From assembly GCF_000331735.1 (NCBI RefSeq), contig NC_020126.1:2542001-2606000 (forward strand): a stretch of DNA of 64,000 bases, read 5' to 3'. Numbering within the stretch: position 1 is the first letter of the stretch; each line of letters starts with the position of its first letter. Below are positions 20,876 through 54,437 of the stretch, piece after piece. The translations under genes were made by a program, and so were the position numbers. The DNA is from Myxococcus stipitatus DSM 14675 (GTDB lineage Bacteria; Myxococcota; Myxococcia; Myxococcales; Myxococcaceae). The notes below the pieces were generated by a model. It worked only from the letters and a program-made list of their open reading frames with translations, searched no databases and was not told the DNA's origin.

Positions 20876-22630
20876 TCAGCCCGGCCAGCGCTGGAGCGCG
20901 TTCTCCAGGTACTTCGCCCGGCACGCGCGACGCTGCACCTTGCCGCTGGAGGTCTTGAGCACCTCGCCATGCTGGAGCAGGACCAGCTCGTGGACATCCA
21001 GCGAGTGCGCCGCGGCGAGCGCCTGCCGCACCTTCCGGGTCACCTCCTTCGTGTCCAGGACCTGCGCCCCCGCGCTGTCTCCCGGCGGCGTGTACTGACG
21101 GTCCACCTCGATGAGCACCACGAGCTTCTCCTCGTTCGACTGCTCCACCGAGAAGGCCACGCAGCAGCCGAGCCGGAAGCCCTCGTGCTGCACCTCCACC
21201 GTCTGCTCGATGTCCTGCGGATAGTGGTTGCGACCATCCACGATGATGAGGTCCTTCAGGCGCCCGGTGACGTACAGCTCGCCCTCCCGCTGGAACCCCA
21301 GGTCCCCCGTGCGCAGGTAACCCCCTTCCGCCTCATGCCCCTGGACGCGCGCCTGGAACGTCTCCGCGTTGTGCTCGCCTCGGCCCCAGTAGCCCTGGGT
21401 GACGTGCGGCCCGGACACCCAGATTTCACCCACCTCGCCATCCGCGCAGGACTGGGACGTCTCCGGGTTGGCGATGCGGACCTGTCCTCCCGCCCAGGCC
21501 CTGCCGCAGCTCACCAGCACTCGCGTGTTCTCCGCGCCTGGGGGCGCGACCACGACGCGATTGCGCTCCAGGGCGCCTGCTTCCACCGTGAGGGTGCGGT
21601 GCGACGCCATGCGCATCCCGCCGGAGGCATAGAGCGTCGCCTCGGCGAGTCCGTAGCAAGGATAGAGCGCCGCCTTCTGGAAGCCCTGCGGCGCGAAGGT
21701 CTCCGCGAAGCGCTCCAGCGTGTCCGCTCGCACGGGCTCCGCGCCGTTGAAGGCGACCTTCCAGGAGCTCAGGTCCAAGCCCTCTCGCTGCTCGGGCTTC
21801 ACCTTCCGCACGCACAGCGCATAGCCGAAGTTCGGGCCTCCGCTCACCACGCCCCGGTACTTGCTGACCGCACGCAGCCAGCGCACCGGCCGCTGCAAGA
21901 AGGCCCACGGCGACATCAACACGCCGTGCCCGCCCAGATACAGCGGATGCATCACCGTGCCGATGAGTCCCATGTCGTGGTACAGCGGCAGCCATCCGAC
22001 GATGGTCGAGGCCGGGTCGCTGCCGAAGCCCCGCCGAATCATCTCCTGATTGGCCAGCAGGTTCCGGTGAGACACCATGACGCCCTTCGGCGTCGACGTG
22101 GAGCCGGACGTGTACTGGAGAAAGGCCATGCTCTCGCCCGTGAGCCGAGGCTCCTTCCACCGCGCCTCCAGCCCCGAGGGCAACGCATCCACGGCGATCC
22201 AGTGCAGCTCCTTCAGCACGGGCGTCGTCTCCGAGAACGCCTTCACGCTCTCCAGGATGTCGCTCGTGGTGAGTGCGAAGCGGGGCTTCGCGTCCGCGAT
22301 GATGGAGAGCAGTCGCGCCAGCGTCTGCTCGTTCTGCGGCGGATAGACGGGCACCGCCGCCACGCCCGCCGTGAGGCAGCCATAGAAGGCCCCGATGTAG
22401 TCGAGCCCCGGCGCGAACAGCAGCAGCGCCCGGTCCTCGGCCGCGCCTTGCTCCTGGAGCGCGGCGGCGATGGCTCGGGTGTTCCGGTCGAGCTCCGCAT
22501 AGCTCCACCGCCGCTCCTGGTCCTCGCCGTTGACGAGGAAGGTGTAGGCGGGAGCGTCGGGCTGGGTCTCGGCGCGCCAGCGCAGCAGTGAGCTCAGCGT
22601 GGTGATGGACGGAGGAATGGCGGCGGTCAC
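20876..22630 (-). CDS. Stand-alone fatty acyl-AMP ligase (FAAL), loading enzyme of the beta-amino-lipopeptide pathway
   Basis: The 584-aa enzyme should adenylate a fatty acid and pass it to the N-terminal ACP of the PKS-NRPS encoded at the start of this operon. FAAL landmarks are YTSGSTSTPKG, PLYHDMGLIGT, GGPNFGYALC, YPCYGLAEATLY and LRTGDLGF, with the C-terminal KTSSGKVQRRACR. It ends without a carrier domain, so it acts in trans. The GTG start overlaps the stop of the MFS gene (GTGA), with AAGGAG 7 nt upstream. In Bacillus iturin-type synthetases the acyl ligase is fused to the first megasynthase. Here it is detached and last in the operon. It is also distinct from the FAAL fused to ACP-C at 7187-10738. 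Confidence 0.95.
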   Translation of the reverse strand: MTAAIPPSITTLSSLLRWRAETQPDAPAYTFLVNGEDQERRWSYAELDRNTRAIAAALQEQGAAEDRALLLFAPGLDYIGAFYGCLTAGVAAVPVYPPQNEQTLARLLSIIADAKPRFALTTSDILESVKAFSETTPVLKELHWIAVDALPSGLEARWKEPRLTGESMAFLQYTSGSTSTPKGVMVSHRNLLANQEMIRRGFGSDPASTIVGWLPLYHDMGLIGTVMHPLYLGGHGVLMSPWAFLQRPVRWLRAVSKYRGVVSGGPNFGYALCVRKVKPEQREGLDLSSWKVAFNGAEPVRADTLERFAETFAPQGFQKAALYPCYGLAEATLYASGGMRMASHRTLTVEAGALERNRVVVAPPGAENTRVLVSCGRAWAGGQVRIANPETSQSCADGEVGEIWVSGPHVTQGYWGRGEHNAETFQARVQGHEAEGGYLRTGDLGFQREGELYVTGRLKDLIIVDGRNHYPQDIEQTVEVQHEGFRLGCCVAFSVEQSNEEKLVVLIEVDRQYTPPGDSAGAQVLDTKEVTRKVRQALAAAHSLDVHELVLLQHGEVLKTSSGKVQRRACRAKYLENALQRWPG

Positions 22631-52000: not shown

Positions 52001-54437
52001 CACCGGAGATGACGACATGGCGCGGGCCGTTGATGGCCGCCACCGCGACCGCGGGCTCTGACTTCAGCGCATCGCGGACCGTCGCCTCGTCGGCCATGAG
52101 GGCGAACATGGCCCCATCCAGAGGCAGCGCCTGGATGAGCTGGCCCCGGAGCGCGAGCAGCCCCAGTGCCTCCTCGAGGCCCAGCACCCCGGCGACCCGC
52201 GCGGCGGCGTACTCGCCCACGCTGTGTCCCAGCACGGCGTCCGGCTTCACGCCCCACGAGGCCCACAGCTCCGTCAGCGCATGGGCCACCGCGAACAGCG
52301 CGGGCTGGGTGTAGCGCGTCTGGTGGACCCGCGCCTCGTCGTCGCCGGGCCCTGGGAAGAGGAGCGACTTCAGCGGCACGTCGAGGTGCGGGCGCAGCAG
52401 CGCCTCACAGCGCTCCAGCGCCTCTCGGAAGACGGGGGCACTCTCGTGGAGCTGGTGCGCCATCCCGGCGTACTGCGCCCCTTGACCGGGGTAGAGGAAG
52501 ACGACACGCGGAGGTGTCTCGCGCCGAGCCTCTCCCTGATGCACCCCCGGCACCCGCTGTCCCTGGAGGAACGCGCCCAGCCGCGCCGCCAGCTCCTCGC
52601 GCGAGCTCGCCACCACGGCGAGCCGATGCGGCCAGGAGTCCCGTCCCGTCGAGGCGGTGAAGCACATCGCCTCCAGCGAGGGCGCGGATGAGGACGCGAG
52701 CAGCTCCAGGTACTGCCGCGCCAACGCATGCAGGGCCGGCAGCGTCTGGGCGGACAACACCAGCAGTTGGTGTGTGCGCGCGGGAGGGCTCGCGGACACC
52801 GGCGCGCGCGAGGGGGGCTCGCCGACGATGACGTGGGCGTTGGTTCCACCGAAGCCGAAGGCGCTGACGCCGGCGTAGCGGTCTCCGGGGGCCTGAGACC
52901 AGGGCTCGTTGCGCGCCGGAATCTGGAAGGCGGGATGCCGCAGCGTGATGTGCGGATTGAGCCGCCGGAAGTGGACCTGCGGCGGAATCTCTCCGTGCCG
53001 CAGCGCCAGGATGGCCTTCACGAGTCCGGCGATTCCCGCGGCGGCCTCCAGGTGGCCGATGTTGCTCTTCGCGGAGCCGACGAAGCACGCGCGCGAAGGG
53101 TCGCGCTCCTGGGAGAGCACCGCCTGGATTGCATCGACCTCGATGGGGTCGCCCAGCTTCGTCCCCGTGCCATGCGCCTCCACGTAGCCGATGCTCGCGG
53201 GGGACAGCCGCGCCTGACGCAGCGCCTGACGGAGGACATCCTGCTGCGCGACGCCGCTGGGCGCGGTGAGGCCGTTGCTCTGGCCATCATGGTTGACCGC
53301 CGAGCCCCGCAGGACGGCGAGGATGGGGTCTCCCGAGGCGAGCGCATCCTCGAGCCGCTTGAGCACGATGACGCCGCAGCCTTCGGAGCGGACATAGCCA
53401 TCCGCGGAGGCATCGAACGTCTTGCAGCGCCCGTCGCTCGCCATCATCCCCGCTTGGGAGAAGGCGATGGTGAGCTCCGGGCTCAGGATGGCATTCACCC
53501 CACCCGCCAGCGCCAGGTCGCACTCCTGGGCGAGGAGGCTCTGCCGGGCCAGGTGGATGGCGACGAGCGACGACGAGCACGCCGTGTCCACCGCCATGCT
53601 CGGCCCGCGCAGCCCCAACAGATACGAGAGGCGGTTGGCCGCGATGCTGTGCGCATTGCCCGTGCCCGCATAGGCATCCAGCAGCGACGGGTCGCTGAAC
53701 TGCCGCCGCGAGTAGTCCTGCGTGCTGATGCCCACGAACACGCCGGTGCGGCTGCCCTGGAGCGAGCGGGGCGCGTGGCCTCCGCGCTCCAGCGCCTCCC
53801 ACGCGACCTCCAGCAGCAGCCGCTGCTGAGGGTCCATCCGGTGCGCCTCGCGCGGGGCGATGCCGAAGAAGAGCGGGTCGAACGCGTCAATCCCCTCGAC
53901 GAAGCCGCCCCAGCGCGTGTTCATCGTCCCGGGCGCGCCGGGCCCCGCGCCGTGAAAGCGCCCCACGTCCCACCGGCTCGCGGGCACCTCGGTGATGGCG
54001 TCGCCGCCGCGCTGGAGCAGCGCCCAGTACGCCTCGGGCGAAGCGGCTCCCGGGAAGCGGCACGCCATCGCGGTGACGGCGATGGCGCCCGCGTCGTCGA
54101 CCGCCTTCGTCGCGGCCTCGGGCTCGGGCGCCGCGGGTGACTCGGGGGGAGGCGTGAGCAACCCCGCCAGATGCCGACTCAGCGCGGAGATGGTCGGGTG
54201 CTCCCACAGCGCGGTGGGCGACACGTCCCGCTCCAGCCAATCCGCGAGGTCTCCCGTGAGGAAGACGGCCTCCTTGGACGTCAGTCCATAGGTGACGAAG
54301 GGCTCGTCGAGCAGCACCTCCTCGGGAGGTAGACCCGCCGCCTCGGCCACCGCGGCGACAAGCCACGCCACGAGTTGCTCGAGGGTCCGAGGAGCACGCG
54401 AAGCAGGGGAATGGGAGGAGGGCAGGGAGGAGCTCAA
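46053..54437 (-). CDS. Hybrid PKS-NRPS: ACP-KS-AT-ACP-aminotransferase-C-A-PCP, builds the beta-amino fatty acid
   Basis: This 2794-aa first megasynthase resembles MycA/ItuA without their acyl ligase. The N-terminal ACP (about 18-85, GLTS) receives the fatty acid. The KS has Cys287 in DTACSSS. The AT has Ser739 in GHSVG and HAFH, so it is malonyl-specific. The second ACP has Ser1048. A low-complexity Ala/Pro/Thr linker precedes a class III PLP aminotransferase (about 1240-1680, PLP Lys1526 in YGKVVGGG), which should convert the beta-ketone to a beta-amine. No KR is present, consistent with that. A C domain (His near 1853), an A domain (specificity residues DAENIGAITK; unresolved, Glu239 hints at a basic side chain) and a PCP (Ser2737) follow. 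The start is the problem. There is no ATG or GTG before the ACP that avoids the divergent gene, so I place it at TTG 54437, without a good Shine-Dalgarno. A GTG 22 codons in is the alternative. Confidence 0.94.
46064..46069 (-). promoter_or_regulatory. Strong ribosome binding site of the Gly-module NRPS
   Basis: AGGAGG lies 7 nt before the GTG at 46056, within the end of the upstream PKS-NRPS gene. It fixes a GTG start overlapping that gene's stop. Confidence 0.7.

What the first reader, a model, noticed from the sequence alone, without database searches (positions are those of the whole stretch)
20876..54437. Iturin-like beta-amino-lipopeptide synthetase in a myxobacterial-type genome
The first megasynthase shows ACP-KS-AT-ACP-aminotransferase-C-A-PCP with no KR, the logic that makes beta-amino fatty acids in iturin/mycosubtilin synthesis. 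Seven NRPS modules, one TE, an MFS exporter and a FAAL follow in one overlapping operon. The combination of residues read from the specificity codes does not match the iturin peptide, so the product may be a new scaffold.
Basis: partly seen in the sequence, partly recalled or inferred. Interest (0 to 1): 0.8.

Follow-up and report, generated by a model that had tools for sequence, protein, structure and literature searches.

The report
Conserved myxobacterial beta-amino lipopeptide gene cluster
A soil predator bacterium and many of its relatives carry the same enzyme assembly line that should make a positively charged, soap-like peptide with a nitrogen-bearing fatty tail; the machinery type is known, but no product has been reported for this version in the literature we could search.

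Summary
The minus strand carries a six-gene operon: ACP-KS-AT-ACP-aminotransferase-C-A-PCP; docking-C-A-PCP; a four-module NRPS with one E domain; C-A-PCP-TE; an MFS exporter; and a fatty acyl-AMP ligase. It has seven NRPS modules and no KR. The aminotransferase keeps its PLP lysine, and its best solved relative is mycosubtilin MycA (452 bits; next family 192).

It works like iturin synthetase but is not an iturin cluster: the ligase is a separate gene, and the predicted peptide is X-Gly-Thr-Asn-(D)Phe-Orn-Orn. Orthologues occur in 21 of 195 Myxococcota genomes (including M. xanthus and Corallococcus); 16 clusters read in full share the layout, two with gaps. A 2022 review already published the same antiSMASH prediction for M. 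xanthus. I found no characterised product.

The C domain after the Thr module belongs to a dehydrating class (closest: McyA, AmbE), so Thr3 probably becomes dehydrobutyrine. A divergently transcribed arginine-deiminase-like gene occurs in exactly the same 21 genomes.

The verdict is a genuine, conserved, apparently uncharacterised new member of a known kind.

The parts
46053..54437 (-). Gene A: PKS-NRPS hybrid ACP1-KS-AT-ACP2-AMT-C-A-PCP (module 1)
   Evidence: Pfam; domain HMMs; TTG start inferred from sequence
54150..54398 (-). ACP1, loading carrier for the fatty acyl chain
   Evidence: one of three carrier domains counted by Pfam; motif YGLTSK; HMM hits in 16 of 16 clusters
52614..54089 (-). 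KS domain, C-H-H active site
51459..52508 (-). AT domain, GHSVGE and HAFH (malonyl-type by recalled rule)
51168..51398 (-). ACP2
   Evidence: LGADSV
49356..50633 (-). Aminotransferase (AMT) with PLP lysine in YGKVVGGG
   Evidence: (MycA 6kfm 452 bits)
46104..49283 (-). Module 1 C-A-PCP, A code DAENIGAITK (substrate unknown, X)
42604..46056 (-). Gene B: TubC_N docking-C-A-PCP, module 2, code for Gly
28141..42558 (-). Gene C: modules 3 (Thr), 4 (Asn), 5 (Phe, with E), 6 (Orn)
37939..39321 (-). C domain of module 4, dehydrating (CmodAA-like) class, motif CHAIIDGWS
31474..32967 (-). Epimerisation domain after module 5 (predicted D-Phe)
23979..28148 (-). Gene D: C-A-PCP-TE, module 7, code for Orn
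23994..24812 (-). Thioesterase, GHSFG
22627..23982 (-). MFS exporter
20876..22630 (-). Stand-alone fatty acyl-AMP ligase (FAAL), GTG start inferred
54532..55476 (+). Divergent arginine-deiminase-like gene, strictly co-occurring with the operon
55481..56593 (-). LuxR-type regulator; seen beside only 4 of 16 clusters (one of them a partial match), so probably not a core part

Best explanation
This is a beta-amino-fatty-acid lipopeptide synthetase of Myxococcaceae. Inferred steps: (1) the FAAL adenylates a fatty acid and loads ACP1; (2) KS-AT adds one malonyl unit to give a beta-ketoacyl-ACP2, which is not reduced because there is no KR; (3) the embedded PLP aminotransferase turns the beta-keto group into a beta-amine; (4) seven modules add X-Gly-Thr-Asn-Phe-Orn-Orn, with Phe epimerised to D; (5) the C domain of module 4 dehydrates Thr3 to dehydrobutyrine (about 0.6); (6) the TE releases the peptide, most likely as a macrolactam closed on the beta-amine as in mycosubtilin (about 0.5), and the MFS protein exports it. 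The arginine-deiminase-like enzyme probably provides a non-proteinogenic precursor from arginine, either citrulline for X or ornithine for modules 6-7 (about 0.4). Shown here: domain content, catalytic residues, homology classes, synteny and strict gene co-occurrence. Inferred: every chemical step and the product.
For: Domain architecture. AMT nearest to MycA 6kfm/6kfu, 452 bits against 192 for the next family, with PLP residues intact. KS, AT, ACP, AMT and TE motifs searched in 16 clusters: present in 16 of 16 apart from KS motif NIGH (missed in 3) and ACP2 motif (missed in 5); on inspection 3 of 3 KS cases are NLGH or SIGH, and the 2 of 5 ACP2 cases looked at (G007, G128) are MGADS. The same predicted residue string in 16 of 16 clusters where readable. 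dN/dS 0.08-0.24 for seven genes against G008. Module-4 C domain: McyA 351 and AmbE 198 bits against 149 or less for the other chains; control C6 shows the reverse (375 and 321 for McyB and PvdL against 157 and 153). Deiminase-like gene in exactly the same 21 of 195 genomes as the AMT orthologues.
Against: No product or expression data exist here. Module 1's code matches no residue I can name with confidence. The module-4 C domain has CH in place of HH in its active-site motif (16 of 16), whereas 19 of 20 other members of its class show HH and one was unread; in 15 of those 20 the preceding A code is Val or Ile, not Ser/Thr. The deiminase-like protein is only distantly related to true arginine deiminases (34 bits; the arcA cut-off is 489), and its structure model is weak (pLDDT 61). 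Ring closure cannot be read from sequence.
Confidence: 0.82

Rival explanations
1. A true iturin-family cluster acquired from Bacillota that makes an iturin-like peptide.
For: AMT homologous to MycA; heptapeptide length; TE release.
Against: In the AMT tree all 23 rows of this cluster form one group (SH-aLRT 100) apart from the 11-row group of Bacillota plus MycA (SH-aLRT 99). The FAAL is a separate gene and an AT is in cis. The codes read X-Gly-Thr-Asn-Phe-Orn-Orn, not the iturin residues. GC is 69-73%, within the range of the rest of the window.
Confidence: 0.03
2. Thr3 stays Thr: the module-4 C domain is a divergent ordinary condensation domain.
For: CHAIIDGWS in place of HHxxxDGxS in 16 of 16. 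In 15 of 20 resolved class members elsewhere the preceding A code is Val or Ile, not Ser/Thr.
Against: The upstream residue in this cluster is Thr in 16 of 16.
Confidence: 0.35
3. The product is released linear, or cyclised through Thr or an Orn side chain, rather than as an iturin-type macrolactam on the beta-amine.
For: Cystomanamides, myxobacterial beta-amino lipopeptides, are linear (PMC9581180 passages); TE type does not fix the nucleophile.
Against: Mycosubtilin closes by a peptide bond on the beta-amine, and puwainaphycins are described as cyclised with their TE (PMC4219810 passages); no sequence test was possible.
Confidence: 0.4
4. The arginine-deiminase-like gene is a self-resistance or other gene rather than a precursor enzyme.
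For: Low similarity to true deiminases; transcribed divergently.
Against: Perfect co-occurrence in 21 of 195 genomes and adjacency in 16 of 16; putative catalytic residues D92, E142, H195, D197 and C305 invariant in 10 of 10 aligned.
Confidence: 0.3

Closest known systems
Predicted lipopeptide cluster of M. xanthus GH5.1.9c20 and M. hansupus, FA-X-Gly-Thr-Asn-Phe-Orn-Orn-TE (PMC9581180, Fig. 4D; passages read, figure not held)
   Same: Identical predicted residue order, a PKS part and a TE; M. xanthus AM003 carries the orthologue (L097).
   Different: The passages read do not mention a beta-amine, dehydrobutyrine or a deiminase-like gene for it; no product is given. The GH5.1.9c20 record itself was not compared.
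Mycosubtilin/iturin synthetases (MycA, ItuA) of Bacillus
   Same: Fatty acyl activation, one PKS elongation, homologous AMT (6kfm), then NRPS modules; seven amino acids (recalled).
   Different: There the acyl ligase is in the same protein and the operon has a separate fenF (PMC4219810 passages); different peptide, cationic here; a separate AMT lineage.
Puwainaphycin synthetase (puw) of cyanobacteria
   Same: Stand-alone FAAL, AMT between PKS and NRPS modules.
   Different: Puw has a separate ACP, an extra reducing PKS module and a monooxygenase (PMC4219810 passages).
Cystomanamide synthetase (ctmA-D) of Cystobacter fuscus
   Same: Myxobacterial lipopeptide with a 3-amino fatty acid (PMC9581180 passages).
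   Different: Five modules, Asn-Asn-Phe-glycerate-Tyr, linear, can carry fructose; its sequence was not compared here.
Microsclerodermin synthetase (msc) of Jahnella/Sorangium
   Same: AMT next to the first NRPS module in myxobacteria (PMC6163206 passages).
   Different: Phenylacetate-started polyketide, monooxygenase, different peptide.
Dehydrating condensation domains (AmbE 7r9x, McyA 8jbr; their role is recalled)
   Same: Best solved relatives of the module-4 C domain.
   Different: CH instead of HH in the active-site motif.
Arginine deiminase / DDAH family
   Same: Pfam ADI hit; Foldseek best matches are arginine deiminases, then DDAH and amidinotransferases.
   Different: Shorter (314 aa), far below the arcA cut-off, encoded with an NRPS.

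Membership tests
Beta-amino fatty acid lipopeptide synthetases (MycA/PuwE-like) | FAAL or acyl ligase plus loading ACP | tested here: met
   FAAL gene, FAAL models best among single-function models though below cut-offs; ACP1 in 16 of 16 clusters
Beta-amino fatty acid lipopeptide synthetases (MycA/PuwE-like) | KS-AT-ACP without KR, followed by class-III aminotransferase | tested here: met
Beta-amino fatty acid lipopeptide synthetases (MycA/PuwE-like) | AMT homologous to the characterised MycA domain, PLP residues intact | tested here: met
   452 bits to 6kfm; K262, D234 and H141 of the AMT segment invariant in 11 of 11 aligned
Beta-amino fatty acid lipopeptide synthetases (MycA/PuwE-like) | Amination of the beta-ketoacyl-ACP | not testable with these tools
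   needs enzymology
Iturin family | Acyl ligase in the same protein as the PKS and AMT | tested here: not met
   FAAL is a separate gene at the 3' end of the operon
Iturin family | Iturin-type peptide starting with Asn (Asn addition by MycA: PMC4219810 passage; full sequence recalled) | tested here: not met
   codes X-Gly-Thr-Asn-Phe-Orn-Orn
Iturin family | Seven amino acids and terminal TE | tested here: met
Dehydrating C domains (CmodAA) | Closest to AmbE/McyA C domains rather than ordinary C domains | tested here: met
Dehydrating C domains (CmodAA) | Follows a Ser or Thr module | tested here: met
   Thr code upstream in 16 of 16; but elsewhere in the class 14 Val, 1 Ile, 4 Ser, 1 Thr of 20 resolved
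Dehydrating C domains (CmodAA) | HHxxxDG motif as in AmbE and McyA | tested here: not met
   CHAIIDG in 16 of 16; HH in AmbE and McyA
Dehydrating C domains (CmodAA) | Dehydroamino acid in the product | not testable with these tools
   needs MS of the product
Arginine deiminase | Catalytic Asp, Glu, His, Asp, Cys (positions recalled from ADI literature) | tested here: met
   D92, E142, H195, D197 and C305 invariant in 10 of 10
Arginine deiminase | Score above the arcA equivalog cut-off | tested here: not met
   34.4 bits against 489.1
Arginine deiminase | Guanidine-modifying fold | tested here: inconclusive
   Foldseek E 5e-11 to 2a9g, but model pLDDT 61, TM-score 0.58 and rmsd 13

The most novel reading that the evidence does not exclude
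The cluster makes a macrocyclic cationic lipopeptide, cyclo[3-amino-fatty acyl - Arg/citrulline - Gly - dehydrobutyrine - Asn - D-Phe - Orn - Orn], in which a dedicated arginine-deiminase-like enzyme supplies the citrulline or ornithine. It is a conserved metabolite of Myxococcus and Corallococcus, including the model predator M. xanthus.
Probability: 0.25. Interest if true: 0.65.

Novelty: new member of a known kind. Interest (0 to 1): 0.45.

Why it matters
A cluster found in 21 species-level genomes of three genera, including genetically tractable M. xanthus, with low dN/dS among close relatives, is likely to make something the bacteria use. A cationic beta-amino lipopeptide is a plausible membrane-active agent in predation. 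Because M. xanthus can be mutated, the product and its role are directly testable. The tightly linked deiminase-like gene would be an accessory not described in the beta-amino lipopeptide papers whose passages I saw.

Tried and rejected
Rejected: transfer from Bacillus iturin clusters (AMT tree). The LuxR gene as a core part was also rejected: 4 of 16 clusters, one a partial match, and in G116 the contig starts too close to judge. No promoter- or terminator-like sites in 54380-55560 (the scan covers sigma-70 consensus only), and no RNA family or tRNA in the window.

Inconclusive: the substrate of module 1. Its nearest solved A domain in the code region is ApnA A1, recalled as Arg/Tyr bispecific, and it shares the Glu at code position 239; the main text of one paper on A-domain codes held no match to DAEN (PMC12283262, passages). 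The deiminase-like model is weak. A test of the rule 'dehydrating C follows Ser/Thr' gave mixed results (14 Val, 1 Ile, 4 Ser, 1 Thr of 20 resolved; 1 of the 21 listed rows, the second copy in G011, was not resolved; codes before ordinary C domains could mostly not be read, so that control is missing). No member of the C class was found among 143 C/E domains of L102-L172 and L083-L092. In one search a regular expression failed to read some positions (shown as '?', plus misreads at 299/301); re-read the window's seven codes by alignment, not those of the orthologous clusters.
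Full report
What is there. The minus strand from 54437 to 20876 carries six genes in one direction. Pfam scans and HMMs made from the window's own domains give: gene A, ACP1-KS-AT-ACP2-AMT-C-A-PCP; gene B, TubC_N docking-C-A-PCP; gene C, C-A-PCP four times with an E domain between modules 5 and 6; gene D, C-A-PCP-TE; an MFS transporter; and a fatty acyl-AMP ligase whose best NCBIfam matches, after a multidomain NRPS/PKS model, are FAAL models below their cut-offs. There are seven A domains and therefore seven NRPS modules. No KR was found. Four of five gene junctions overlap by 4-8 nt and one has a 45-nt gap.

The aminotransferase. Against the PDB its best match is the AMT domain of mycosubtilin synthetase MycA (6kfm, 452 bits); the next family, glutamate-1-semialdehyde aminomutase, scores at most 192 bits. 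The PLP lysine, the pyridine-binding Asp and the SYHG motif are present and conserved. A paper describes the MycA domain as putting an amine from Gln onto a beta-ketothioester (PMC3870968, passages).

Distribution. AMT orthologues at 77-100% identity occur in 21 of 195 Myxococcota genomes searched: 16 of 27 of the same genus (the window's included), four of a second genus and one of a third. Other AMT matches at 45-62% occur in further genomes. Named records with the orthologue include Myxococcus xanthus AM003, M. eversor, M. qinghaiensis, M. vastator and Corallococcus terminator (its list was cut at the best 80). One record is labelled Comamonas sp. KCTC 72670, but its sequence groups with Myxococcus. 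I fetched 33-40 kb around the AMT in 20 relatives. Fifteen of these are orthologues and show the same six-part architecture as the window, with two reservations: in G112 the FAAL runs off the fetched stretch, and G007 has frame breaks in gene C and in the MFS gene. The other five (G126, G121, G103, G119, G123) are different clusters. Five further orthologues (G013, G021, G022, G023, G025) were not read in full.

Selection and tree. Nei-Gojobori dN/dS between the window and G008 is 0.08-0.24 for seven genes, and up to 0.46 for more distant pairs. In an AMT tree of 104 rows this clade (23 rows) has SH-aLRT support 100 and lies apart from the Bacillota group that holds MycA. This was a quick tree with no bootstrap.

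Predicted peptide. The specificity positions are recalled from the PheA numbering; the tenth residue (Lys) is assumed. They read DAENIGAITK (X), DILQLGMVWK (Gly), DFWNIGMVHK (Thr), DATKVGEVGK (Asn), DACTIAAVCK (Phe), DVGEVGSIDK (Orn) and DVGEIGSIDK (Orn). Residue assignments to codes are recalled. Across the 16 clusters the codes agree apart from conservative changes (for example V/I, and DAC/DAA in module 5) and positions the script could not read or misread. One E domain implies D-Phe.

Prior notice. A 2022 review reports from antiSMASH a cluster in M. xanthus and M. hansupus for FA-X-Gly-Thr-Asn-Phe-Orn-Orn-TE (Figure 4D: M. xanthus GH5.1.9c20) and says M. stipitatus may be a lipopeptide producer (PMC9581180, passages). 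The residue order is identical, so the scaffold is not newly noticed here. Of ten full-text searches of an open-licence library, seven bear on a product and showed no isolated one; the other three were on MycA structure, C-domain types and the genome. Subscription papers are mostly absent, so a published product cannot be excluded.

First, the C domain of module 4 (37939-39321) matches McyA (351 bits) and AmbE (198 bits) best, with all other PDB chains at 149 or less. The C domain of module 6, run as a control, prefers McyB and PvdL (375, 321), with McyA and AmbE at 157 and 153. AmbE 7r9x is, from recall, the solved dehydrating C domain. In 42 chosen genomes without the orthologue, 21 listed rows score 225-347 bits and the next 184 (capped list), so it looks like a discrete class. 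The residue before it here is Thr, so Thr3 to dehydrobutyrine is the likely outcome. Against this, the motif is CHAIIDGWS in 16 of 16 instead of HH, which 19 of 20 other members show, and in those 20 the preceding code is Val 14, Ile 1, Ser 4, Thr 1. Val and Ile would need beta-hydroxylation or another route first; dehydrovaline in myxovalargin is recalled, not tested.

Second, the divergent gene at 54532-55476 on the + strand is an arginine-deiminase-like protein (Pfam ADI 40.6 bits over a 22.8 cut-off). It is adjacent in 16 of 16 clusters and occurs in 16 of 27 genus genomes and 21 of 195 phylum genomes. These are exactly the genomes with the AMT orthologue, and no others at E <= 1e-15. Shared ancestry makes a plain probability meaningless, but it is strong linkage. 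Residues matching the recalled ADI active site are invariant in 10 of 10 aligned. The AlphaFold model is weak (pLDDT 61) but its best Foldseek matches are arginine deiminases. I infer a precursor role, citrulline for X or ornithine for modules 6-7.

Substrate X. The code-region sequence of module 1 is nearest in the PDB to ApnA A1, recalled as Arg/Tyr bispecific, and it keeps the Glu recalled to bind the Arg guanidinium. Over the whole A domain the two-domain chains of linear gramicidin synthase score higher in total. Arg or citrulline is my guess, at about 0.3-0.4.

Mechanism. FAAL loads a fatty acid on ACP1; KS-AT adds malonate; no KR leaves a beta-ketone; the AMT aminates it; seven modules build X-Gly-Thr/Dhb-Asn-D-Phe-Orn-Orn; the TE releases; MFS exports. 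This works like mycosubtilin and puwainaphycin synthesis (PMC4219810, passages). It is not an iturin: the ligase is detached, the AT is in cis and the peptide differs. The same kind of machine is widespread: of the 71 non-orthologous loci returned, 55 show KS-AT-ACP-AMT, 50 of these with a C domain next, and 44 of those with a FAAL in the same stretch (some stretches are cut by contig ends). They include cyanobacteria, Bacillota, Chloroflexota and others.

Verdict. This is a genuine, conserved cluster, uncharacterised as far as could be searched, and a new member of a known kind. Interest is moderate: the scaffold was predicted before, while the dehydrating domain and the strictly linked deiminase-like gene are new pointers that make the product testable in M. 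xanthus.

Noticed in passing
window 1-10738 (minus strand): A second lipopeptide-like cluster lies 10 kb away: FAAL-ACP-C (7187-10738), a TauD-family dioxygenase (6118-7185), C-A-PCP (2816-6163) and a KS-AT protein running off the window start (ORF 3-3815, true start probably lower).
   Followed up: partly
window 17026-18945 and 19037-20872 (plus strand), 15625-16407 (minus): Two adjacent YCF48/BNR-repeat proteins and a glycosyl hydrolase family 45 protein next to the FAAL end of the operon; the neighbour of the FAAL (19037-20872) was found beside the cluster in 3 of 21 regions, the window included.
   Followed up: no
L099 (BNCN01000007.1): Record titled Comamonas sp. KCTC 72670 carries the Myxococcus-type cluster; probably a mislabelled Myxococcus genome.
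   Followed up: no
G007:C1:3019734-3059733 (L065, L066): Frame breaks in gene C and in the MFS gene of this orthologous cluster; either decay in one strain or sequencing error.
   Followed up: no
L185-L200 and L215-L218: In 14 of 20 resolved cases a C domain of the McyA/AmbE-like class directly follows a Val module in other myxobacterial NRPSs, which suggests dehydrovaline formation or a wider substrate range for this class.
   Followed up: partly
L036 (G021): A second, diverged AMT-bearing gene (50-53% identity) at a contig edge in one Myxococcus genome.
   Followed up: no
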